Source: a virus
IMG/VR virus record: IMGVR_UViG_3300010316_000013
Span: 1 to 46,417 of that record
Strand: one strand, 5' to 3'
DNA length: 46,417 nucleotides
Shown here: positions 14,318 to 46,369 of the stretch, one piece after another
How the letters are laid out: the number at the start of each line of letters is the position of its first letter
Numbering within the stretch: position 1 is the first letter of the stretch
The notes under the pieces: generated by a model
What the model was told of the DNA's origin: nothing
Database searches by the model: none
Seen by the model: only the letters and a program-made list of their open reading frames with translations
Made by a program: the position numbers and the translations under genes

Positions 14318-14914
14318 ATGTTTGTTTATATGTGGACTAATTTAGTTAATGATAAAAAGTATATAGGAAGACATGCTGGAAAACAGACGAGCACTTATAA
14401 AGGTTCAGGAAAGTATTTTCGACGTGCTTTAAATAAATTTGGAGAAGAGAACTTTAAAAGAGAAATATTAAAAGAATGCAAGGATTTAACTGAATGTATT
14501 AAATGGGAACAATATTATTTAGATTTTTATAATGCTTCTAAAAACATTAATTTTTATAATATTTCTCCTAGCGCACATGGCGGACATCATGGTGCAGACT
14601 ATAACGGAGAAAAAAATCCAATGTGGGGTCGAAAACATCCTAACCATGTTCCCCACTATGGAAAAGATAACGGAATGCACGGAGTTAGAAGAAAGCTTTC
14701 TGAAAATCCAAATGCTAAAAAGGTTAAACTAATTAATCCTAGTGGTAAAGAATATTACTTTGATAGTATGTTAGAAGCTTGTATTTCTCTTACAGGAAGT
14801 GAAAAAGAATATGGAAAAATGAAACATTTATTCCATAAAACGAAAGAAAATAAATCTTTAAGAAAAGATGCTAGATTTTATAATTGGAAAGGATATTACA
14901 CCAATGAGCAATAG
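14318..14914 (+). CDS. GIY-YIG homing endonuclease
   Basis: The 198-residue protein has VYM (3-5) and YIG (15-17), a conserved Glu in ECIKWEQYYLD, and NUMOD3-like segments (GEKNPMWGRKHP, GKDNGMHG). The C-terminal part (IFYF-type helices) probably binds the target. Codon use is more AT-rich than nrdA and nrdB, a sign of independent origin. Its last 11 bases overlap the nrdB start, and an AAAGGA in its codons serves as the nrdB ribosome site. Confidence 0.9.
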   Translation: MFVYMWTNLVNDKKYIGRHAGKQTSTYKGSGKYFRRALNKFGEENFKREILKECKDLTECIKWEQYYLDFYNASKNINFYNISPSAHGGHHGADYNGEKNPMWGRKHPNHVPHYGKDNGMHGVRRKLSENPNAKKVKLINPSGKEYYFDSMLEACISLTGSEKEYGKMKHLFHKTKENKSLRKDARFYNWKGYYTNEQ

Positions 14915-16040
14915 CAGTGTATTTGACACGAGTAACAGAGCAAACCACACGGAAGTAAAGGCTTTCCTGGACCCAAGTGGTGGTCCTACAATACAGAGAT
15001 ACGACACTATGAAATATCCTAGTATTGACAAATTTACTGACAAGCAGTTGGGGTTTTTTTGGTTACCACAAGAAGTTGATATCTATCAAGATGCTAAAGA
15101 CTTCAAAGCACTTACAGAACACGAACGTCATATCTTTACTTCGAACCTAAAGAGACAGATCCTGCTCGACAGTGTACAAGGCCGTGCACCAGTAGAAGCA
15201 TTTGCTCCTATTGTATCGCTGCCTGAGTTAGAGAACTGGATTCAAACTTGGACGTTTAGTGAGACTATTCACAGCCGCAGCTATACACACATCATTCGCA
15301 ACGTGTATTCAAACCCAAGCAAGATCTTTGACGGCTTAATGGACATCAAAGAGATTGTGGAATGTGCCGAAGACATCTCCAAGTACTACGATGACTTGAT
15401 TGAAATGTCAATGTGGTACAATCTGCTAGGTGTAGGTACACACACTGTTAACGGTAAAGAAGTTGTTGTTGACTTGTATGAGCTAAAGAAGCTGCTATAC
15501 CTGACACTTATGAGCGTTAATATCCTCGAAGGCGTGCGGTTCTATGTTAGCTTTGCGTGTAGCTGGGCGTTTGCTGAACTAAAGAAGATGGAAGGCAATG
15601 CTAAGATCATTAAGTTTATCGCGCGTGACGAAAATCTACACTTGGGTAGCACACAGTTGATGCTTGGGATCCTACAAAAAGACGACCCAGACTTTGTTAA
15701 GATTGTAGAAGAAACCAAGGACGAGTGTATACAAATGTTTGTAGACGCAGTTGATCAAGAGAAAGAATGGGCAGAGTACCTGTTTAAAGACGGTTCTATG
15801 ATCGGACTTAACACTCACTTACTAAGCGAGTACATTGAATGGATCTGTACACGTCGAATGGAAAAGGTAAAGCTACCTAGCCCGTACAACGTAAAGCATA
15901 ATCCGCTACCTTGGACACAGAAATGGATCTCAGGATCAGACGTGCAAGTAGCCCCTCAGCAAACGCAGATAAGTTCATACATCACAGGCGGCAGCAAGCA
16001 AGATGTCGACGGCGATACCTTTAAAGGAATGAGTCTTTAA
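14904..16040 (+). CDS. nrdB: Ribonucleotide reductase class Ia, beta subunit
   Basis: The 378-residue subunit houses the diiron-tyrosyl radical cofactor. Ligands and radical are in place: Asp89 (LLDSVQGR), Glu120 and His123 (SETIHS), Tyr127 (RSYTH), then Glu in NILEGVRFY and Glu/His in ARDENLHL. I chose ATG 14904 over an upstream in-frame ATG inside the GIY-YIG gene because it has AAAGGA upstream and matches the family start. Both ends are flanked by GIY-YIG genes, and its final 56 bases are repeated at 17185-17240. Confidence 0.97.
   Translation: MSNSSVFDTSNRANHTEVKAFLDPSGGPTIQRYDTMKYPSIDKFTDKQLGFFWLPQEVDIYQDAKDFKALTEHERHIFTSNLKRQILLDSVQGRAPVEAFAPIVSLPELENWIQTWTFSETIHSRSYTHIIRNVYSNPSKIFDGLMDIKEIVECAEDISKYYDDLIEMSMWYNLLGVGTHTVNGKEVVVDLYELKKLLYLTLMSVNILEGVRFYVSFACSWAFAELKKMEGNAKIIKFIARDENLHLGSTQLMLGILQKDDPDFVKIVEETKDECIQMFVDAVDQEKEWAEYLFKDGSMIGLNTHLLSEYIEWICTRRMEKVKLPSPYNVKHNPLPWTQKWISGSDVQVAPQQTQISSYITGGSKQDVDGDTFKGMSL
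15978..16033 (+). repeat. 56-bp direct repeat, copy 1 (end of nrdB)
   Basis: The last codons of nrdB, from TACATCACAGGCGGCAGC to GGAATGAG, are identical base for base to 17185-17240 on the far side of the GIY-YIG gene. Confidence 0.95.
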
Positions 16041-17165
16041 ATGTGGACCAACCCAACTACAATTGATCCTGATATATTAAGCATGTCAAAATCTCTCAAT
16101 TGTAGTTGGGTTGGCGCAGTTAGCGTAAAATACGAATCAGCTTATGACATCAACGATTGTCATAATAATTCTAGTTTACATGCTACTATATATGGCGGAA
16201 CTCAAACAATTGGATATTATTTTATAAAGGGGTTCGGTACTACACAGGCAATTCGTCATAGCGTGTGGGAGAAAAATCAAACACTGTTAGATGTAACTCC
16301 GCATTTAGATAATAGAGAATACATTATTTTTGCAAAAAGTGCAATACAAAATAAAGAGTATTCTATACCTAACTGTTATTTTCAGTCTCTTGCTAAATAT
16401 ATAGGACAGGAGACTGAAGTTATGTATTATGTATATCAGATAGTAGACCCAAGAAACAACCAGCCGTTTTATGTTGGAAAAGGAAAAGGACGAAGAGCAA
16501 AAACTCATTTATGGAAAATTCCTGAAACTAGAAATGCATATAAAGAGAATAAAATTGCTGATATTCGAAAATCCAATCTAGAACCTAGAATTGAATATAT
16601 TGCTGAAAATATTATCGACGAAACACTAGCATATAACATCGAAGCAGTATTAATTAAAAAATATGGCAGAAAAGGTTACGATAAAAATGGTATACTATCT
16701 AATGTATGCTTAGACAACAGGCCTCCTAACCAAAAAGGAAAGACATATGAAGAAATCTATGGTATTGAAAAAGCATTAGAACAAAGAAAACTAAGGTCTA
16801 GACTTCAACAAGAACGAAAAGGGTATGGACCAAAAACTCATACTGAAGAAACTAAAAATAAAATTAGCAAAAGTATTACCGAACTGCACAATAACAGAGA
16901 CTGTTCACATAACGAAGGAACCAAGAAAAAAATTGGACTAGCCAATAGCAAGTATACAGGTAAGTTAAATAAGAAAAGTTATTGCTATGTGTTAACATCT
17001 CCTACTGGTGTAGAGCACGAAGTATACGGTGGAGAAGCAACAGAATTTTGCAAACAAAATAATTTAAGTTGGAGTACACTTAAGATGCAGATACAAAAAA
17101 ACTGGCCTATTCCTAAAAAAGGTAAAACAAAAGGTTGGAAATTAGAGGTAAAGAATGAAAAATAA
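16041..17165 (+). CDS. GIY-YIG homing endonuclease with extra N-terminal domain
   Basis: The protein has 374 residues. The ATG begins on the base after the nrdB stop. Residues 1-125 are a separate domain of unknown function containing HSVWEKNQTLLDVTPHLD. The GIY-YIG domain starts at YVY (130-132) with YVG at 144-146, and the catalytic Glu lies in AYNIEAVLIKKYGRKGY. NUMOD-type DNA-binding segments follow, with a C-terminal NUMOD1-like part (YVLTSPTGVEHEVYGG). Codon use is AT-rich. The gene separates nrdB from its old 3' end and from glutaredoxin. Confidence 0.88.
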   Translation: MWTNPTTIDPDILSMSKSLNCSWVGAVSVKYESAYDINDCHNNSSLHATIYGGTQTIGYYFIKGFGTTQAIRHSVWEKNQTLLDVTPHLDNREYIIFAKSAIQNKEYSIPNCYFQSLAKYIGQETEVMYYVYQIVDPRNNQPFYVGKGKGRRAKTHLWKIPETRNAYKENKIADIRKSNLEPRIEYIAENIIDETLAYNIEAVLIKKYGRKGYDKNGILSNVCLDNRPPNQKGKTYEEIYGIEKALEQRKLRSRLQQERKGYGPKTHTEETKNKISKSITELHNNRDCSHNEGTKKKIGLANSKYTGKLNKKSYCYVLTSPTGVEHEVYGGEATEFCKQNNLSWSTLKMQIQKNWPIPKKGKTKGWKLEVKNEK

Positions 17166-20483: not shown

Positions 20484-20504
20484 AGGGCCTTAGGGCCCTT
20501 TTTT
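20484..20504 (+). terminator. Rho-independent terminator
   Basis: AGGGCC, loop TTAG, GGCCCT, then six T residues. It ends the lipoprotein unit just before the tmRNA promoter. Confidence 0.9.
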
Positions 20505-20505
20505 C

Positions 20506-20534
20506 TTGACAAGCACTTCTAAAGAGTGTATAAA
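20506..20534 (+). promoter_or_regulatory. Promoter of the tmRNA gene
   Basis: TTGACA (20506-20511), 17 bases, TATAAA (20529-20534). The transcript would begin a few bases before the first tmRNA hairpin at 20547. Confidence 0.88.
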
Positions 20535-20540
20535 TATACT

Positions 20541-20960
20541 TGCAACGTTGAAGCAATTCAACAACATATTCTGGACCGGGGGGCGGTACCCCGATCGTCC
20601 ACCACAAGCACATAATGTGTGTTTTTGATGGGCGATAAATAGGATCGACAGGTGTGTGAGGAAAGTGGAGTTGTCCCGATCTAAGCTGGGTAACGCGAAG
20701 AACATACTAACTGCAAACGTAAATGCAAAGCCAGAGATGGCACTAGCAGCGTAAGCTGCGTGGGCTTACAGACTGCCTAGAAACAGAAAATCTGCTCCGA
20801 GTATGGGTTCCACTCGTTTACTACAAAAAACGGGCCCACTTACAGACGGAAAAAAGGCACAACATAGTTTTACTGGCTGAGTTTATGGTCTTGTGCTATA
20901 CAATCTTTTAGTACCGGCGGACTACGAATAGTGGGATACAAAACGCACCACTCTGAAAAT
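20541..20960 (+). ncRNA. ssrA: Circularly permuted two-piece tmRNA
   Basis: The acceptor piece comes first: a GNRA hairpin (20547-20562), a T arm (CGGGG, 7-base loop, CCCCG; 20577-20593) and ATCGTCC-A-CCA (20594-20604). After a 25-base spacer the coding piece begins GGGCGAT (20630-20636), which pairs with ATCGTCC to form the 7-bp acceptor stem, followed by the tmRNA-like AGGATCGACAGG. The tag frame (20713-20754) reads ANVNAKPEMALAA and stops at TAA, ending in the canonical ALAA degradation signal. The T loop (GGCGGTA) is not the tRNA consensus. Both ends are approximate. Permuted tmRNA is normal in alphaproteobacteria and some cyanobacteria, but unusual in a phage. Confidence 0.93.
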
Positions 20961-25692: not shown

Positions 25693-26001
25693 ATGTCAAC
25701 GCAGCTTGATGTAGTAATTGACGAGAAAATTAAGCAAATTAATCACTTACCTAGCAAGTATAACGTGGTAATGTTAAACGACGACAAAACTCCAATTGAC
25801 TGGGTTATTTCAGTACTGACTGAGATCTTTAAACACAGTGACGCAACAGCAGAGTCTTTGACTATGGATATTCATAACAAAGGATCAGCAGTAGTCGGCA
25901 CCTATTCGTACGAGATCGCAGAGCAGAAGGCACTTGAAACTATTAATCTAAGTCGCAGCAATGGCTTTCCTTTACAAGTAAAGGTAGACGAAGAGAAATG
26001 A
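25693..26001 (+). CDS. clpS: ClpS adaptor (N-degron recognition)
   Basis: The 102-residue protein has a flexible N-terminus, then YNVVMLNDDKTPIDWVISVL with Asn29, Asp30 and Asp31 in the N-degron pocket, IHNKGSAVVGTYSYEIAE with the conserved His61, and NGFPLQVKVDEE at the end. It would deliver substrates to host ClpA. It shares an ATGA overlap with the heme oxygenase gene, so they are co-translated. Confidence 0.93.
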   Translation: MSTQLDVVIDEKIKQINHLPSKYNVVMLNDDKTPIDWVISVLTEIFKHSDATAESLTMDIHNKGSAVVGTYSYEIAEQKALETINLSRSNGFPLQVKVDEEK

Positions 26002-26525
26002 ATTTAAAAGAGCTTACCTGGGAACATCACAAGAACGCTGAACGACAAGCATTTGTAAAAGAGCTGCTAGGTGGGAACATAACTAATAACCGTTACGCTA
26101 CCTTTCTCTTTAACAGTCACCCACAGTACAACATACTTGAACAATTTGCTATGCTTCACGATTTGATAGACTTTAGGCGAGCACCTGCCATCCATGAAGA
26201 CTATTTAGAACTTTGGGACGAACATCCAAATCAGCCCCCGACTCTTCCGGTAGTAAAAGAGTATACAGATCATATTGCATCAATCAAAGATGATCCTAAC
26301 AAGCTAATGGCACATATCTACGTTCGTCATATGGGTGACTTGAGTGGCGGACAGATGATTGCAAAACGTGTACCTGGCAAGGGCAGACTATACCAGTTCG
26401 ACGAAGATGTTGATGTTTTAAAAGAAAGCATCAGAACACGTCTCGATGATTCTATGGCAGACGAAGCTAAGATCTGCTTTGACTTTGCCACTAAGCAGTT
26501 TCAACAAATGATGGATATTAAATGA
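25998..26525 (+). CDS. ho1: Heme oxygenase
   Basis: The 175-residue protein is short for the family (about 210-240) but has the proximal heme His in EHHKNAE (His11) and the distal helix motif GDLSGGQ (around residue 112-118). It opens heme to biliverdin IX-alpha, releasing iron and CO. It is coupled to clpS upstream and to a bilin reductase downstream by ATGA overlaps, so biliverdin is probably its product for the next enzyme. Confidence 0.93.
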   Translation: MNLKELTWEHHKNAERQAFVKELLGGNITNNRYATFLFNSHPQYNILEQFAMLHDLIDFRRAPAIHEDYLELWDEHPNQPPTLPVVKEYTDHIASIKDDPNKLMAHIYVRHMGDLSGGQMIAKRVPGKGRLYQFDEDVDVLKESIRTRLDDSMADEAKICFDFATKQFQQMMDIK

Positions 26526-27211
26526 GCGAAGTCTGGGATATACTGATTGACTGTCAAACTCAAATAATTGATAAACTAGATGCTAGTTGCTTCGAGTATC
26601 ACGAATTTGAAATGGAAAAGTTTAACCAGCCCGATAACGGATGGGTTAACAGACTTTGGATGAGTGATAGTATACGAAGAGCTCACGTTGACGTAGTAGA
26701 TGCTAGAGCCAGTCGCGGACTTTGGATGATGCACGTATGCGTGTTTCCTAGGTTAAGCAGCGATGCTCCTATATACGGGTTTGATGTCATTGCTGGCAAG
26801 AACAAGATGACAGGGGCCTTTTTAGACTTCTCTCCTACAGTACACGACACGCATCCTATGATGATTGAATTTGAAGATATGGTACAAGCGTTTGTACCTG
26901 CGAAGAAGCGCGAACTGCCTGAGTGGGCTACTAACATATTTTCAAAGAATATGATAGCAGCAGGTAATGTTGGCAGCACTGAAACTAATGATATTGTTCA
27001 ACTTGCGTTAGGCACATTGGATTATTACATTAACGACGTCAGTGATTATACAGGCAACGCAACAGAAGATTTAGTTAAAGCTAAACAAAATTGGTATTGT
27101 GAGAACCAAAAGCTAAACCCGCATACTCCTCGAGTAATGAAAAGCCTAGGCTTAGACGAAGCGGACGTTAACTTATTCTGTAAGGATATTCTCTTTCCTG
27201 AAATCTTATAA
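26522..27211 (+). CDS. Ferredoxin-dependent bilin reductase (PebS/PcyX-like)
   Basis: The 229-residue protein has the family core RLSSDAPIYGFDVIAGKNKMTGAF followed by LDFSP with the proton-donating Asp102, and a C-terminal LFCKDILFPEIL region. It is fused in operon with heme oxygenase, so it should reduce biliverdin with ferredoxin. Sequence alone does not separate phycoerythrobilin-forming PebS or PcyX from other members. PcyX is a phage type reported from marine metagenomes, which fits this context. Confidence 0.85.
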   Translation: MSEVWDILIDCQTQIIDKLDASCFEYHEFEMEKFNQPDNGWVNRLWMSDSIRRAHVDVVDARASRGLWMMHVCVFPRLSSDAPIYGFDVIAGKNKMTGAFLDFSPTVHDTHPMMIEFEDMVQAFVPAKKRELPEWATNIFSKNMIAAGNVGSTETNDIVQLALGTLDYYINDVSDYTGNATEDLVKAKQNWYCENQKLNPHTPRVMKSLGLDEADVNLFCKDILFPEIL

Positions 27212-38685: not shown

Positions 38686-38931
38686 ATGACAACCAACACC
38701 GAATATGATCTATATATTGAACTAGTTTCTGATGAAGGTGATGCTCTTTATTACTGTCGTCCTAAACGCAATCGAAAAGCTCTAGCTCTTCCGCAAGGGT
38801 ATAGCTTTTCGAGGACATGGAAGATAAAGGATGGCGAAGAACTTGTCTTACACTATGACAAACTAAAGTTACCTCCGATGTCAAGAAACAAGCTACTGCT
38901 GATGATGCTGAACGCAGAGGTTATCAAGTGA
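38686..38931 (+). CDS. Small-paralog family member 3
   Basis: The 81-residue protein has SRTWKIKDGEELVLHYDKLK and RNKLLLMMLNAEV, parallel to the paralogs on the other side of the non-coding block. ATG overlaps the start of the next gene by ATGA-type coupling at its end. Confidence 0.7.
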   Translation: MTTNTEYDLYIELVSDEGDALYYCRPKRNRKALALPQGYSFSRTWKIKDGEELVLHYDKLKLPPMSRNKLLLMMLNAEVIK

Positions 38932-39161
38932 CTACTTACTATCTAGAAATAAAAACTACTGGTAAGAATACTTGTAACTATTATTTCAAGACGACATCTT
39001 ATATCAACATTCCGGAAATATACAAGTACCATTCAAATCGAATATGGAAAGTATACAATTCTGGGTGCATACAATGGATTAAGAATATTCCCAATGGGAC
39101 AATGTCACCTATAGATTACAAAGAATTTTTACTAATTCAACCCAAGGCTGAAAAATTATGA
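38928..39161 (+). CDS. Small-paralog family member 4
   Basis: The 77-residue protein has SNRIWKVYNSGCIQWIKNIP and YKEFLLIQPKAEK, again the family motif. It is ATGA-coupled to the previous gene and to tilS. Confidence 0.7.
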   Translation: MTTYYLEIKTTGKNTCNYYFKTTSYINIPEIYKYHSNRIWKVYNSGCIQWIKNIPNGTMSPIDYKEFLLIQPKAEKL

Positions 39162-39760
39162 TTAAACTACAAGGAAAACTTCCTAGAAAGATCTACTTAG
39201 CGTGTTCAGGCGGCAGCGATAGTATGGCTGCGCTTGACTTCCTACGTAGAAATCATGAAGTAGAAGTGTTGTATGTTCATCACAGAACCAGCCACGGTGA
39301 ATCAGCATTACATTTTTTAGGTAATTATTGTACAACTCACAATCTAAAGATTACTTGGTGCGCTATTGACCCAGCCAGGCCTGATAGGGAAAGTCAAGAA
39401 GAATGGTGGAGAAACGAACGCTACCGGTTTTTTGATAACTTTATTGATGCTCCTGTAGTAACCTGCCATCACTTGGACGACTGTGTTGAAACGTGGATTT
39501 GGAGCAGTCTTAACGGTACTGGAAAGATTATTCCACGTACACGCGGAAATGTAATTCGTCCGTTTCGTCTCACACGCAAGAGAGATTTTGCTATGTGGAA
39601 CGCAATGCGCAACGTTGAGTGGAAAGAGGATGACAGCAACGCAGATACCAGTTATACTAGAAACTATATCAGACACGAAATGATGCCACATGTACTAACA
39701 GTGAATCCTGGCATCCACAAGGTTGTAGCAAGAAAGGTAAGAGACGATGGGATGGTTTAA
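39158..39760 (+). CDS. tilS: tRNA(Ile)-lysidine synthetase, minimal
   Basis: The 200-residue protein contains the PP-loop SGGSDS (17-22), HHLDD (104-108) with ET (111-112), the IRPFRLTRK segment and EDDSNADTSYTRNYIR. These are the signature blocks of TilS, which puts lysidine on C34 of tRNA-Ile(CAU) so it reads AUA. It stops where the catalytic domain ends, without the C-terminal domains of E. coli TilS (about 430 residues). Its presence suggests the phage array includes a tRNA-Ile(CAU), not visible here. ATGA overlap with the upstream paralog. Confidence 0.92.
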   Translation: MIKLQGKLPRKIYLACSGGSDSMAALDFLRRNHEVEVLYVHHRTSHGESALHFLGNYCTTHNLKITWCAIDPARPDRESQEEWWRNERYRFFDNFIDAPVVTCHHLDDCVETWIWSSLNGTGKIIPRTRGNVIRPFRLTRKRDFAMWNAMRNVEWKEDDSNADTSYTRNYIRHEMMPHVLTVNPGIHKVVARKVRDDGMV

Positions 39761-40214
39761 AAAACGACACAAACACGAGTGGGAGTTGATATCAGTTAAC
39801 GATGAGAATAGCACAACTTTTACTGATCAAAGCAACAAACCAGTATATCACGAGATACGATTCTACAAATGCCATTGCGACGTTCGAAAAGCTGAATCTA
39901 ATTGTTCTATGGGACACCGGGGAATTAAACTAGCTATACTAGACTGGACAGAAGCTGGGGTTCTTCCCAAAGGGTCATATCATCCTAGTAATAAGATCGG
40001 AACTCTTACAGTCAACGATATCCACCGACAGAAACTTGACTCTGTTTTGGAATATCTAAAGACACTTGCTGAGATGAAAACAGCTTTAGGTGTCGTTTTA
40101 AATCGCGACTTTGATTTAGAGGCACGACATCCAAAGCTTAAAGAAGCAGCAGACGAGTATCATCGCAGACTAGACAAATATCGAAATTTTGACACACTAA
40201 AGGACAGTAAATGA
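39747..40214 (+). CDS. Phage protein, unknown
   Basis: The 155-residue protein starts MGWFKKRHKHEWELI and contains FYKCHCDVRKAESNCSMGHR, with three Cys and three His that could bind zinc. It overlaps tilS by 14 bases. Function unknown. Confidence 0.7.
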   Translation: MGWFKKRHKHEWELISVNDENSTTFTDQSNKPVYHEIRFYKCHCDVRKAESNCSMGHRGIKLAILDWTEAGVLPKGSYHPSNKIGTLTVNDIHRQKLDSVLEYLKTLAEMKTALGVVLNRDFDLEARHPKLKEAADEYHRRLDKYRNFDTLKDSK

Positions 40215-42122: not shown

Positions 42123-42740
42123 ATGGCACTAATACCTTTTGTAGTAGAACAGACCTCATCTGGGGAACGCTCGTATGATATATTTTCAAGATTACTTCGA
42201 GATAGAATTATAATGTTAAACGGATCAATACATACTGGCATGTCGCATTCAATTGTAGCACAAATGTTGTTCCTTGAGTCAGAAGATCCTAACAAAGAAA
42301 TTAATCTTTATATTAACTCCGGCGGCGGCGAAGTAACAGCCGGAGTTGCGATCTACGACACTATGCAGTTCATCAAGCCTGACGTTAAAACAATTGTAAT
42401 GGGTCAAGCTTGTTCAATGGGCAGCTTCCTTGCTCAAGCAGGTGCAGCAGGAAAACGCTTTGTACTGCCTGAGTCACGTACAATGATTCACAGAGTTAGC
42501 AGCGGTACACGAGGTACAAGCGGTAGTGTACACGTACAAGAACTTGAGTTTGAAGACGCTCGTCGTGCGTTTGAGGAGTCAAAGAAGGTCAACAAGCGGC
42601 TGACCGAACTGTACGAGCGCCATAACACCGCAGGCAAGAAATACGACGAACTGTATGAAACTATGAAGTTTGATACGTTCCTAACAGCAGAGGAGGCAGT
42701 TGAGTATGGACTCGCAGACAAAGTCGTCACTAGCCGTTGA
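42123..42740 (+). CDS. clpP: ClpP-type serine protease
   Basis: The 205-residue protease has the catalytic Ser98 (QACSMGS), His123 (RTMIHRV) and Asp184 (MKFDTFL), with the substrate groove GGGEVTAG and the YINSGGG motif. It could assemble with host Clp ATPases or act alone. A longer loop than E. coli ClpP separates His and Asp. It is positioned among small genes. Together with clpS and a tmRNA, this phage controls several parts of Clp proteolysis. Confidence 0.93.
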
Positions 42741-43992: not shown

Positions 43993-44090
43993 TACTGTGA
44001 CAGGTGGTAAGTATGGTTCAAATCCATATGTTGGGTGGCTTCCCATAAACAGACGACGGTCGACCGAAGGTTCGAATCCTTCCACAGTAT
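43993..44090 (+). other. tRNA-like element, degenerate or chimeric
   Basis: It ends like a tRNA: T arm GAAGG-TTCGAAT-CCTTC (44066-44082) and an acceptor CACAGTA that pairs with TACTGTG at 43993-43999. The middle does not form a normal D and anticodon arm. It instead contains a second T-arm-like hairpin (TATGG-TTCAAAT-CCATA around 44012). No CCA is encoded. It is a chimera of two tRNAs or a decayed tRNA. Confidence 0.55.
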
Positions 44091-44107
44091 AGTTGTAAGT
44101 AGAGTTT

Positions 44108-44140
44108 ATTCCCCAGTAGCTCAGTTGGCTAAGGGAATTA
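44108..44140 (+). pseudogene. 5' tRNA fragment
   Basis: CCCAGTAGCTCAGTTGGCTAAGG has the start and D arm of a tRNA but is cut short and runs straight into tRNA-Asn. It is a relic left by recombination in the array. Confidence 0.55.
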
Positions 44141-44141
44141 T

Positions 44142-44217
44142 TCCGGCATAATTCAGTTGGTAGAATAGCGGACTGTTAATCCGTATGTCCCTGGTTCGAG
44201 CCCAGGTGCCGGAGCCA
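44142..44217 (+). tRNA. tRNA-Asn (GUU)
   Basis: A complete cloverleaf: acceptor TCCGGCA/TGCCGGA, anticodon loop CTGTTAA, T arm CCTGG-TTCGAGC-CCAGG, and encoded CCA. Decodes AAY. Confidence 0.97.
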
Positions 44218-44233
44218 TTTTATAGCTCACTTT

Positions 44234-44241
44234 GATAAATA
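44234..44241 (+). promoter_or_regulatory. T4-like late promoter of HNH gene
   Basis: GATAAATA, with TTAGGAG before the ATG at 44264. Confidence 0.65.
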
Positions 44242-44263
44242 ACTATGTTATTAGGAGTGAGCT

Positions 44264-44710
44264 ATGTTAAGTGAAAAAGAAATACGACACGCTCTTGACA
44301 AGCATTGGAATATAGGTCCTGCGGCAAAAGAGTTAGGTGTTGGATACAGTACACTACGCAAGTATATTGCACAATACGGTATTGAACACGATAGCCGCAA
44401 AAGTAAAGACGGTCCAAAGTTTGACAAGAACGCTTATGCCGCAAAGGCTGTAACTAGAGCAAGGCAAAAGAAAAAGCTAGAAGCACTAGAATACAGAGGC
44501 GGAATGAAGTGTACACGATGTGGGTTTGATGAACCTGTTCCAGACTGTTATGCGTTTCATCATAGAGATCCAGCAAGTAAAGATCCAAGCTGGGGCAAGA
44601 TGAAAACAAATAACTGGAGTTTGGAAAAGATGAAAGAAGAACTTAACAAGTGTGATGTCCTATGCCATAACTGTCACAGTATTGTACACTGGGAACAGAG
44701 ACAGGCGTAG
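44264..44710 (+). CDS. HNH homing endonuclease in the tRNA array
   Basis: The protein has 148 residues. An N-terminal helix-turn-helix (GPAAKELGVGYSTLRKYIAQYG) is followed by a zinc-supported HNH: CTRC (83-86), HHRDP (99-103), CHNC (134-137) and HSIVHWE. It sits between tRNA-Asn and the next tRNA with its own late promoter, the usual position of a free-standing homing gene. Confidence 0.9.
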   Translation: MLSEKEIRHALDKHWNIGPAAKELGVGYSTLRKYIAQYGIEHDSRKSKDGPKFDKNAYAAKAVTRARQKKKLEALEYRGGMKCTRCGFDEPVPDCYAFHHRDPASKDPSWGKMKTNNWSLEKMKEELNKCDVLCHNCHSIVHWEQRQA

Positions 44711-44900
44711 GAGCCAAAATAACGGTACTTGACTAGGTGGGAGTTAAGTTAAATCGCCCTAAATGGCCACTAGGGTAGAGCCAAACACATAGGTATCGCA
44801 AGCGCGACTAAGACACCCTAAAAAGTGGGCAGTGCCATTAGCAAGAAGATAAACACGGCAGCCTCATTGCGTAGTAACGGTGCTTCTTGCTGTAGAATAT
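44711..44900 (+). other. Structured non-coding spacer in tRNA array
   Basis: There is no coding potential. It contains CCCTA/TAGGG (44757-44775 region) and AGCAAGAAG (44840-44848) pairing with CTTCTTGCT (44883-44891), the second long stem in the array. It could guide processing of the tRNA precursor. Confidence 0.5.
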
Positions 44901-44991
44901 AGAGAGGTGACTGAGTGGTCGAAAGTACTCCCCTGCTAAGGGAGCGAACGTTAATAGCGTTCCGTGGGTTCGAATCCCATCCTCTCTGCCA
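44901..44991 (+). tRNA. tRNA-Ser (GCU)
   Basis: Class II tRNA with a long variable arm: acceptor AGAGAGG/CCTCTCT, anticodon loop CTGCTAA, T arm GTGGG-TTCGAAT-CCCAT, encoded CCA. Decodes AGY. Confidence 0.97.
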
Positions 44992-45003
44992 TAATAGAAT
45001 AAT

Positions 45004-45078
45004 GCGGGATTAACTCAGTGGTAGAGTAGCTGCTTTACACGCAGAATGTCGGCGGTTCGAATCCGTCATCCCGCACCA
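45004..45078 (+). tRNA. tRNA-Val (UAC)
   Basis: Acceptor GCGGGAT/ATCCCGC, anticodon loop TTTACAC, T arm GGCGG-TTCGAAT-CCGTC, encoded ACCA. Decodes GUA and GUG. Confidence 0.96.
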
Positions 45079-45086
45079 AAACAACA

Positions 45087-45222
45087 TTGTAAGTTGAGTT
45101 TGCACCACAAGCATAGCCGTGCTGCAACATCTTAAGATACTGCACTGGACTGCCCGAAAGATTACCTAGCACGTAAGTGGAATGGTTGCTCTAGCAGATA
45201 CCACTTTATGCTCAACTTGCAA
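45087..45222 (+). other. Structured non-coding spacer closed by a 12-bp stem
   Basis: TTGTAAGTTGAG (45087-45098) pairs with CTCAACTTGCAA (45211-45222), one G-U pair, enclosing 112 bases with an inner hairpin (AAGTGG ... CCACTT near 45176-45207). A matching TTGTAAGTAGAGTTT also occurs at 44093. It looks like an RNA domain or a processing stem rather than a gene. Confidence 0.5.
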
Positions 45223-45236
45223 TTAGAATAACCTGG

Positions 45237-45422
45237 GTGTTAGCAGGTGAACAGAACATTGACTTAGCGGTTGGTGTTAAAACGAAGACGGTTCAAGTAC
45301 GTAACATGGCAACCTTCGGCTTAGTAACTCCAGTAACGTACCCCAAGGACGTAAGTCCATTACCACAGGCGCCAAAATTTGTGGATAATGTCTCTGATGT
45401 TGTGGTAGAGAGCCCAGGTTAA
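45237..45422 (+). CDS. Doubtful short ORF in the tRNA array
   Basis: GTG opens a 61-codon frame (LAGEQNIDLAVGVKTKT ... DVVVESPG). No ribosome site is visible. The ORF lies almost exactly between an 8-base inverted repeat, AACCTGGG (45230-45237) and CCCAGGTT (45413-45420). It may be a fragment of a structural gene rather than a working gene. Confidence 0.35.
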   Translation: MLAGEQNIDLAVGVKTKTVQVRNMATFGLVTPVTYPKDVSPLPQAPKFVDNVSDVVVESPG

Positions 45423-45430
45423 CTTTTTAT

Positions 45431-45504
45431 GTCGGTGAAGTGTTATGGTAGCACATCAGTCTCCAAAACTGAGGGCGAGGGTTCAACTCCTTCCACCGAT
45501 GCCA
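45431..45504 (+). tRNA. tRNA-Trp (CCA)
   Basis: Acceptor GTCGGTG/CACCGAT with one G-U pair, anticodon loop CTCCAAA, T arm with TTCAACT, encoded CCA. Decodes UGG. Confidence 0.94.
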
Positions 45505-45514
45505 AATAGAATAC

Positions 45515-45604
45515 GGAGAGGTGGCCGAGCGGTCGAAGGCGTCAGTCTTGAAAACTGAAGAACCTTTACGGGTTCCCAGGGTTCGAATCCCTGTCTCTCT
45601 GCCA
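45515..45604 (+). tRNA. tRNA-Ser (UGA)
   Basis: Class II tRNA: acceptor GGAGAGG/TCTCTCT, anticodon loop CTTGAAA, long variable arm, T arm CAGGG-TTCGAAT-CCCTG, encoded CCA. Decodes UCA. Confidence 0.97.
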
Positions 45605-45632
45605 GTATAAAACGGCGGAAGGTAGAAGTTTG

Positions 45633-45640
45633 GATAAATA
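45633..45640 (+). promoter_or_regulatory. T4-like late promoter
   Basis: GATAAATA only 6 bases before the ATG at 45646, so the transcript may be leaderless or start at a downstream ATG. Confidence 0.45.
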
Positions 45641-45645
45641 ACTTT

Positions 45646-46191
45646 ATGTTAATATGTAAACAATGTAATACCGAATTTAAGCCGAATAAAATGAAAGCAC
45701 AAAGTTTTTGTACTTATGAGTGTTATAAAGCATCTTTAGAGAAACCTAAAAAGTTTTGTAAAAACTGTAATAGTGAAATAACTAAGAAATGGGCAAAAGA
45801 GTTTTGTTGCCGTTCGTGTAGTGCTTCGTTTAATAACAAAAAAAGAGACTATGGATATCGTCGTTCAAAGTTAGAAGAACACATCGAAGAAGTAGTTAAA
45901 GAAAAAACTGATAAAACTATTTTGTTTAACGATAAAACAGTTATAGGATCAGAATTAGATATATATGTTCCAGACTTAAAGTTAGCTATTGAAATACAAG
46001 GTATATTTCATTATCAACCAGTGTTTGGAGAAGAGAAGTTTAACAGTATTCAAAAAAATGATGCTGAAAAAAGAAAAAAGTGCGAAGAGTTAGGGATCAG
46101 GTTAGTTGAGATTGATACTCGAGAACAACAACAGTTTAGCATAGAATCTTCTAAGAAGTATGTTGATATTGTACTAGAACTGATTTCATAA
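45646..46191 (+). CDS. Zinc-finger PD-(D/E)XK-type homing nuclease
   Basis: The protein has 181 residues. Two Cys4 zinc ribbons lie in the first 65 residues (CKQCN ... CTYEC and CKNCN ... CCRSC). A nuclease-like domain follows with GSELDIYVPDLKLAIEIQG (about residue 105), the E-x-D...E-x-Q spacing of Vsr/DUF559-like nucleases, and LGIRLVEID at the end. Codons are AT-rich and its location within the tRNA array fits a free-standing homing gene. Confidence 0.75.
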   Translation: MLICKQCNTEFKPNKMKAQSFCTYECYKASLEKPKKFCKNCNSEITKKWAKEFCCRSCSASFNNKKRDYGYRRSKLEEHIEEVVKEKTDKTILFNDKTVIGSELDIYVPDLKLAIEIQGIFHYQPVFGEEKFNSIQKNDAEKRKKCEELGIRLVEIDTREQQQFSIESSKKYVDIVLELIS

Positions 46192-46216
46192 TCCCTGCGC
46201 TTCCGCCATAAACACT

Positions 46217-46290
46217 GCGGGTATAGCATAGTGGTAATGTTACAGCCTTCCAAGCTGAAGAGAGGAGTTCGATTCTCCTTACCCGCTCCA
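46217..46290 (+). tRNA. tRNA-Gly (UCC)
   Basis: Acceptor GCGGGTA/TACCCGC, anticodon loop CTTCCAA, T arm AGGAG-TTCGATT-CTCCT, encoded CCA. Decodes GGA and GGG. Confidence 0.96.
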
Positions 46291-46295
46291 AAATT

Positions 46296-46369
46296 GGCCC
46301 TATGGTATATAGGTATTACACTAGACTGTCTATCTGGAAAACAGGGTTCGAGTCCCTGTAGGGTCGCCA
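46296..46369 (+). tRNA. tRNA-Asp (GUC)
   Basis: Acceptor GGCCCTA/TAGGGTC with one G-U, anticodon stem CTAGA/TCTGG around loop CTGTCTA, T arm ACAGGG-TTCGAGT-CCCTGT, encoded CCA. Position 37 is a U, which is unusual next to GUC. Confidence 0.88.

What the first reader, a model, noticed from the sequence alone, without database searches (positions are those of the whole stretch)
39158..39760. Minimal phage TilS
It has the lysidine synthetase signatures but only the catalytic domain. TilS acts on tRNA-Ile(CAU), so a matching tRNA is expected in the phage array outside this window. Direct control of AUA decoding by a phage is uncommon.
Basis: partly seen in the sequence, partly recalled or inferred. 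Interest (0 to 1): 0.75.

Follow-up and report, generated by a model that had tools for sequence, protein, structure and literature searches.

The report
Catalytic-domain-only phage tRNA-lysidine enzyme
A large bacterial virus carries a stripped-down version of the enzyme that lets cells read the isoleucine codon AUA, and relatives of the virus carry the transfer RNA that this enzyme should modify, sometimes directly beside the gene.

Summary
ORF 39158-39760 (+, 200 aa) scores above the curated TIGR02432 TilS cut-off (102.8 vs 93.6 bits). Its 56-member family profile finds TilS structures at 3e-31 and the next PP-loop family, TtuA, only at 3e-4. It contains only the catalytic domain: in 80 of 83 closed ORFs of the family the protein is 195-219 aa, in three 240 aa. 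No PF09179 (TilS C-terminal) match was found in the window or ten large related records. The 80 bacterial relatives fetched carry more protein after this domain (one through a frameshift). Phage versions form one clade under purifying selection.

The window lacks a CAU tRNA and ends inside its tRNA array, so the predicted partner is untested here. In relatives it is supported: 8 of 11 large records carry a CAU tRNA with the C4-G69 pair of known tRNA-Ile2, and all 7 tRNAs within 60 nt of tilS are CAU (about 5 lineages).

Most likely it makes lysidine-34 on tRNA-Ile2 for AUA decoding. TilS in phages is already in print. The domain-only architecture, its breadth and the tRNA linkage appear new.

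The parts
39158..39760 (+). tilS-like gene, 200 aa, TilS N-terminal (PP-loop) domain only
39206..39223 (+). PP-loop SGGSDS (residues 17-22), ATP binding
   Evidence: sequence; S17 G18 G19 D21 S22 invariant in 56 sequences
39410..39424 (+). RNERY motif (residues 85-89)
   Evidence: R88 and Y89 invariant; R88 aligns to Aquifex TilS R113 by counting in the alignment
39467..39493 (+). HHLDDCVET motif (residues 104-112)
   Evidence: H104, D108, E111 invariant; they align to Aquifex H133, D137, E140
39629..39673 (+). D-x-x-N...R-N-x-x-R motif (residues 158-172) shared with TilS
   Evidence: D158, N161, R168, N169, R172 invariant; shared with solved TilS
38928..39161 (+). upstream ORF overlapping tilS by 4 bases, suggesting co-translation
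   Evidence: no Pfam family at E up to 1
39747..40214 (+). downstream ORF overlapping tilS by 14 bases; no TilS C-terminal domain match
44142..46369 (+). tRNA array (Asn gtt, Ser gct, Val tac, Trp cca, Ser tga, Gly tcc, Asp gtc), cut by the end of the record; no CAU tRNA

Best explanation
The gene encodes a tRNA(Ile)-lysidine synthetase reduced to its catalytic N-terminal domain. It most likely adenylates C34 of a CAU-anticodon tRNA-Ile2 with ATP and then attaches lysine, giving lysidine. That turns a tRNA that would read AUG as Met into one that reads AUA as Ile. The phage uses AUA often (27.6% of Ile codons), and relatives carry their own tRNA-Ile2(CAU), often grouped with tRNA-Arg(UCU) and tRNA-Leu(UAA). 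The likely role is therefore to keep AUA decoding, and with it isoleucine charging of the phage's own tRNA, running during infection without depending on host TilS. Shown: family, predicted fold, conserved active-site residues, domain content, selection, tRNA linkage in relatives. Inferred: activity, substrate, and recognition through the anticodon stem-loop alone, because the domains that read the rest of the tRNA are absent.
For: TilS family above curated cut-off. Family profile vs TilS structures 3.1e-31, next family 3.2e-4. AlphaFold2 model mean pLDDT 95.0; best structural matches all TilS, Z 20.6-23.3 over 198-200 residues. Active-site residues invariant in 56 of 56. Purifying selection. 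All 7 tRNAs found within 60 nt of tilS in 84 loci are CAU, though CAU makes up 34 of 516 tRNAs there; they represent about 5 lineages. 8 of 11 records of about 180 kb or more hold a CAU tRNA with C4-G69, 6 of them also C5-G68, as in E. coli ileX, T4 tRNA-Ile and three bacterial tRNAs, and unlike E. coli metT/U and metZ/W/V. AUA is 18.5 per 1000 codons in the window. AUA is the most avoided codon inside tilS genes, 66 seen against 193 expected, which fits an enzyme needed before AUA can be read well.
Against: No CAU tRNA lies in the window itself. Three of the 11 large records showed no C4-G69 CAU tRNA in the stretches read: PA5oct, G002 and G008; records may be incomplete and not every tRNA match was fetched. 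Of the five tRNA types next to tilS, only L091 has both E. coli TilS determinants, L083 and L084 have C4-G69 only, and L060 and L075 have neither, so those two may be tRNA-Met. In bacteria C-terminal domains contact the tRNA, and residues of CTD2 are needed in tested type I enzymes (PMC12514573 passages), so a lone catalytic domain might be weak or unspecific. AUA avoidance is not unique to tilS: ClpP is lower (0.26) and several other genes are near 0.43. No activity is shown.
Confidence: 0.77

Rival explanations
1. It is a real lysidine synthetase but acts mainly on the host's tRNA-Ile2, simply adding enzyme when the phage raises AUA demand.
For: The window carries no CAU tRNA. Three of 11 large relatives showed no C4-G69 CAU tRNA in the stretches read.
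Against: 8 of 11 large relatives do have a tRNA-Ile2-like CAU tRNA, and only CAU tRNAs lie within 60 nt of tilS, 7 of 7.
Confidence: 0.12
2. The lone catalytic domain is not autonomous: it works with a separate tRNA-binding partner (phage or host), perhaps host TilS itself.
For: Bacterial TilS uses C-terminal domains to contact the tRNA (PMC12514573 passages), and these are absent here. The overlapping neighbours 38928-39161 and 39747-40214 have no clear family.
Against: No PF09179 match in the window or ten large related records at E up to 1. An unrelated partner cannot be excluded.
Confidence: 0.07
3. It is a TilS relative that has moved to another substrate, such as tRNA-Met(CAU) or another PP-loop reaction, or is inactive.
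For: Loss of the acceptor-stem-reading domains removes a known basis for rejecting tRNA-Met (passages). Two of the five adjacent CAU tRNA types lack both C4-G69 and C5-G68.
Against: The motifs shared with TilS are invariant and the profile separates sharply from TtuA and MnmA. dN/dS 0.05-0.45 argues against an inactive protein.
Confidence: 0.04

Closest known systems
Bacterial TilS type I and type II (E. coli, Geobacillus kaustophilus; Aquifex aeolicus, Mycobacterium smegmatis)
   Same: Same catalytic domain, motifs and predicted fold.
   Different: Type I has CTD1 and CTD2, type II lacks CTD2 (PMC12514573, passages). The phage protein has neither and ends near the start of the linker helix (model 1-200 aligns to Aquifex 6-233).
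TilS of Pseudomonas jumbo phages PA5oct/MIJ3
   Same: About 41% identical, also of catalytic-domain length (gene of 612 bases in MK797984), in a phage with CAU, Leu(UAA) and Arg(UCU) tRNAs.
   Different: The MIJ3 paper reports TilS as first seen in phages and suggests it keeps the host alive. The passages read do not mention domain content or a tRNA-Ile partner (PMC6892783).
TilS-like proteins of RsoM2USA (349 aa), pelagimyophages and chloroviruses
   Same: Virus-encoded putative TilS; chloroviruses are proposed to use it for their frequent AUA codons.
   Different: RsoM2USA TilS is 349 aa, longer than the family here. The chlorovirus and pelagimyophage proteins were not compared here.
tRNA-Ile(CAU) of phage T4 and of a T4-like vibriophage
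   Same: Phage-borne CAU tRNA; lysidine was found on one vibriophage tRNA according to a review (PMC13191261 passage). T4 tRNA-Ile shares C4-G69 and C5-G68.
   Different: There the review suggests host enzymes may do the modifying. Here the phage brings its own enzyme.

Membership tests
TilS (tRNA(Ile)-lysidine synthetase) | Match over curated cut-off of TIGR02432 lysidine_TilS_N | tested here: met
   102.8 bits vs 93.6, model 1-189 of 189
TilS (tRNA(Ile)-lysidine synthetase) | PP-loop SGGxDS and the D-x-x-N...RN-x-x-R motif shared by solved TilS | tested here: met
   Invariant in 56 of 56 phage sequences; aligned to 1wy5, 1ni5, 3a2k
TilS (tRNA(Ile)-lysidine synthetase) | Closer to TilS than to other PP-loop families | tested here: met
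   TilS 3.1e-31, TtuA 3.2e-4, MnmA 0.32; Z 20.6-23.3 vs 17.9
TilS (tRNA(Ile)-lysidine synthetase) | Makes lysidine at C34 of tRNA-Ile2 | not testable with these tools
   Needs biochemistry
TilS type I or type II architecture | Linker helix and at least one C-terminal tRNA-binding domain | tested here: not met
   200 aa; PF09179 (67-position TilS profile, taken here as CTD1) absent in 11 of 11 records searched, control found in 12 of 14 genomes, over the cut-off in 4; 80 of 83 closed ORFs of the family 195-219 aa
Phage TilS/tRNA-Ile2 pair | CAU tRNA of Ile2 type in the same genome | tested here: inconclusive
   Absent from this truncated window; present by C4-G69 in 8 of 11 large related records
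TtcA/TtuA or MnmA thiolases | Best sequence match to these families | tested here: not met

The most novel reading that the evidence does not exclude
These phages use a third TilS architecture, a self-sufficient catalytic domain that picks its substrate from the anticodon stem-loop alone. It forms a phage-owned enzyme-tRNA pair that is partly independent of the acceptor-stem rules of host TilS, so AUA decoding passes under phage control.
Probability: 0.4. Interest if true: 0.72.

Novelty: new variant of a known kind. Interest (0 to 1): 0.5.

Why it matters
Bacterial TilS is described as using C-terminal domains to tell tRNA-Ile2 from tRNA-Met. A widespread natural family with only the catalytic domain, kept under strong selection, makes it directly testable how much of that discrimination the catalytic domain can do. 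It would also be a case where a phage brings both a tRNA and the enzyme that gives that tRNA its amino-acid and codon identity, and it offers a small enzyme for studying AUA decoding.

Tried and rejected
Split gene: the missing C-terminal domain could have been encoded separately. PF09179 gave no match at E up to 1 in the window and ten large related records, and ten neighbouring ORFs gave no TilS domain.

Truncated or decaying gene: rejected, since relatives of the same length form one clade with dN/dS 0.05-0.45 in 130 pairs (these pairs overlap heavily and include near-copies).

A tRNA-like stretch at 43993-44090 (25.5 bits, below the gathering score) contains CAT; allowing introns or a looser threshold in ARAGORN gave no CAU tRNA there, so it is not counted as the partner.

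AUA avoidance as a specific signature of tilS: a crude baseline gave 62 seen vs 228 expected; with conserved genes as baseline 66 vs 193, rank 2 of 36 families, behind ClpP. Some of the 36 families look like antisense ORFs. I treat it as suggestive only.

A search with one tRNA-Ile2 sequence in ten records matched PA5oct tRNAs; the best G018 match turned out to lie on a tRNA-Arg, so it was not counted.

Viral structure library: only three strong matches, of 238, 348 and 696 aa; one is named TilS. Not followed up.

Full report
What is there. The ORF at 39158-39760 (+) starts with ATG, encodes 200 aa and overlaps its neighbours by 4 and 14 bases. It matches Pfam ATP_bind_3 (100.6 bits) and, above the curated cut-off, TIGR02432 lysidine_TilS_N (102.8 vs 93.6 bits, full model). 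PHROGs had no proper match: the best was phrog_424, PAPS reductase, E 0.0062. A single-sequence search of solved structures found only three distinct sequences, all TilS, from Aquifex (8.8e-14), E. coli and Geobacillus.

Relatives. tblastn in 50,697 phage records gave 34 records. The best were two uncultured huge-phage genomes of 635 and 642 kb (45% identity) and eleven PA5oct-like Pseudomonas records (about 41%). The other 21 are at 24-30% identity; several look like bacterial sequence in phage-labelled records and were not used. In IMG/VR, 102 stretches encode a relative and 80 loci were kept, at 51-66% identity, some on contigs up to 357 kb. I dereplicated 84 ORFs (80 IMG/VR loci, PA5oct, two huge phages, the window) to 56 below 95% identity; L039, which runs off its contig, was left out, and L037 and L038 were left out beside L036.

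Family membership. In the 56-sequence alignment S17, G18, G19, D21, S22, R88, Y89, H104, D108, E111, D158, N161, R168, N169 and R172 are invariant. By counting along the alignment, R88, H104, D108, E111 and R172 align to Aquifex R113, H133, D137, E140 and R205; that several of these are catalytic is recalled, since the original structure paper is not held. The profile scores TilS structures at 3.1e-31, 4.6e-25 and 6.9e-24, then TtuA 3.2e-4 and MnmA 0.32. The AlphaFold2 model (53-row alignment, mean pLDDT 95.0, pTM 0.89) matches TilS first by Foldseek (TM-score by query length 0.81-0.85) and by VIA-align 2 (2e89, 2e21, 1ni5, 1wy5, 3a2k: Z 23.3-20.6, rmsd 2.3-2.7 A, 198-200 residues aligned; TtuA next at 17.9).

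Only the catalytic domain. Of 83 closed phage ORFs, 80 are 195-219 aa and three (L036-L038) are 240 aa. The model's residues 1-200 align to Aquifex 6-233, so the protein ends near the start of the linker helix. PF09179 was not found at E up to 1 in the window, seven large IMG/VR records, two huge phages or PA5oct, while the same search rang in 12 of 14 control genomes, over its cut-off in 4. Of the 80 bacterial relatives kept, 79 have at least 98 further residues in frame after the match, median of all 80 227. In the 80th (L133) the frame stops after 12 codons, but an open frame resembling a TilS C-terminus, judged by eye, continues in another frame. These 80 are the best matches of a capped search, not a random sample. 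A quick tree puts the 56 phage sequences on one side of a branch with SH-aLRT 99. dN/dS is 0.05-0.45 over 130 pairs with dS 0.1-1.5.

The tRNA partner. The window is a 46,417-base virus record and nothing more of the genome is held. It has seven tRNAs, none CAU, and its last bases look like the start of another tRNA. I therefore looked in relatives. ARAGORN was run on all relative loci and on 20 stretches from ten large records chosen from Rfam tRNA matches; the match list was cut, so some tRNAs of these records were not read. Fifty different CAU tRNAs, seven of them reference sequences, were compared at acceptor pairs 4:69 and 5:68. PMC12514573 (passages) gives C4:G69 and C5:G68 as dominant identity elements for E. 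coli TilS. [quoted passage not shown] subtilis, so this test is imperfect. E. coli ileX, T4 tRNA-Ile and three bacterial matches to ileX have both pairs; E. coli metT/U and metZ/W/V do not. Of 11 large records (G001-G008, two huge phages, PA5oct), six have a CAU tRNA with both pairs (G001, G003, G006, G007 and both huge phages) and two with C4-G69 and U5.G68 (G004, G005). Three have none in what was read (G002, G008, PA5oct). G001 holds the phage whose TilS is 63% identical to the window's. In G001, G003 and G004 the CAU tRNA sits in a small cluster with Arg(UCU) and Leu(UAA), away from the main array; similar company is seen in PA5oct and around L060, L061, L063, L084 and L091.

Physical linkage. 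In the 84 loci ARAGORN finds 516 tRNAs, 34 of them CAU. Seven lie within 60 nt of tilS and all seven are CAU (L060, L061, L063, L091, L075, L083, L084). The first three are close relatives, so this is about five lineages. Taking tRNAs as independent, the chance of five out of five is about 1e-6 (my arithmetic, which ignores clustering of tRNA genes). By acceptor pairs only L091 is a full Ile2 match, L083 and L084 are partial, and L060 and L075 are not. Either the last two are Met tRNAs or the catalytic domain does not use these pairs.

Codon demand. With ORFs of 90 aa or more, AUA is 214 of 775 Ile codons (27.6%), 18.5 per 1000, in the window, and 45-57% in the AT-rich relatives L010, L011, L012 and L090; L056 is an exception at 7%. 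The window's tilS has 0 AUA among 11 Ile codons. Across the family, tilS genes have 66 AUA where the conserved genes of the same loci predict 193, the strongest avoidance of any codon in tilS (next: TCG and CTC, 0.62) and second of 36 families. ClpP is lower still (0.26), and several other genes, among them DNA ligase and a redoxin, lie near 0.43, so this is compatible with a need to make TilS before AUA can be read, but not specific to it.

Mechanism. [quoted passage not shown] charging switches from Met to Ile and decoding from AUG to AUA (PMC11938285 passage). The phage protein keeps the domain that does this. What it lacks is the part that in bacteria contacts the anticodon and/or acceptor stem (PMC12514573). 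I infer that it reads the anticodon stem-loop, perhaps with lower selectivity, and acts mainly on phage-borne tRNA-Ile2.

What is in print. The MIJ3 paper (PMC6892783, passages) reports TilS as new to phages, suggests a role in host viability, and lists tRNA-Met, -Leu and -Arg among its tRNAs; the passages read do not mention domain content or tRNA-Ile2. RsoM2USA has a 349-aa TilS (PMC8504454, passages). Some pelagimyophages encode TilS (PMC7029224, one passage). 39 of 41 chloroviruses do, and the authors propose help with AUA (PMC7589089, passages). A review cites lysidine on a vibriophage tRNA(CAU) (PMC13191261, passages). I saw no report of a catalytic-domain-only TilS in the searches, of which I saw the listings and the passages named above; only open-licence papers are held.

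Verdict. A real, well-conserved, catalytic-domain-only TilS of large phages: a new architectural variant of a known enzyme whose presence in phages is already reported. Interest is moderate, resting on the testable question of how the lone domain selects its tRNA.

Noticed in passing
window 20502-20845: tmRNA on the + strand, matched both as permuted (RF04321, 98.5 bits) and alphaproteobacterial (RF01849); tag peptide ANVNAKPEMALAA. Relatives L017, L018, L019 and L075 also carry tmRNAs that ARAGORN marks with a star; that the star means permuted is recalled.
   Followed up: no
window 25998-27211: Adjacent genes for a heme oxygenase (PF01126) and a ferredoxin-dependent bilin reductase (PF05996): a phage bilin-making pair.
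   Followed up: no
window 43993-44140: tRNA-like debris: a 25.5-bit tRNA match with a clean acceptor stem and T arm but two T-arm-like hairpins, followed by what looks like a lone tRNA 5' half before tRNA-Asn.
   Followed up: partly
window 14318-17165: GIY-YIG type ORFs lie between and after the ribonucleotide reductase large and small subunit genes.
   Followed up: no
L091:12117-12191, L104:5647, L107:3545, L051:18525: Suppressor-type tRNAs (anticodon CTA or TTA) in several TilS-bearing phage records, hinting at stop-codon readthrough or reassignment there.
   Followed up: no
window 42123-42740: ClpP protease gene near tilS; its family is found in 33 of 56 loci and is even poorer in AUA than tilS, 29 seen against 112 expected.
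   Followed up: partly
L054:18126, L060:10918, L051:17658: tRNAs for which ARAGORN prints four-letter anticodons (tgat or gtag), so probably unusual anticodon loops.
   Followed up: no
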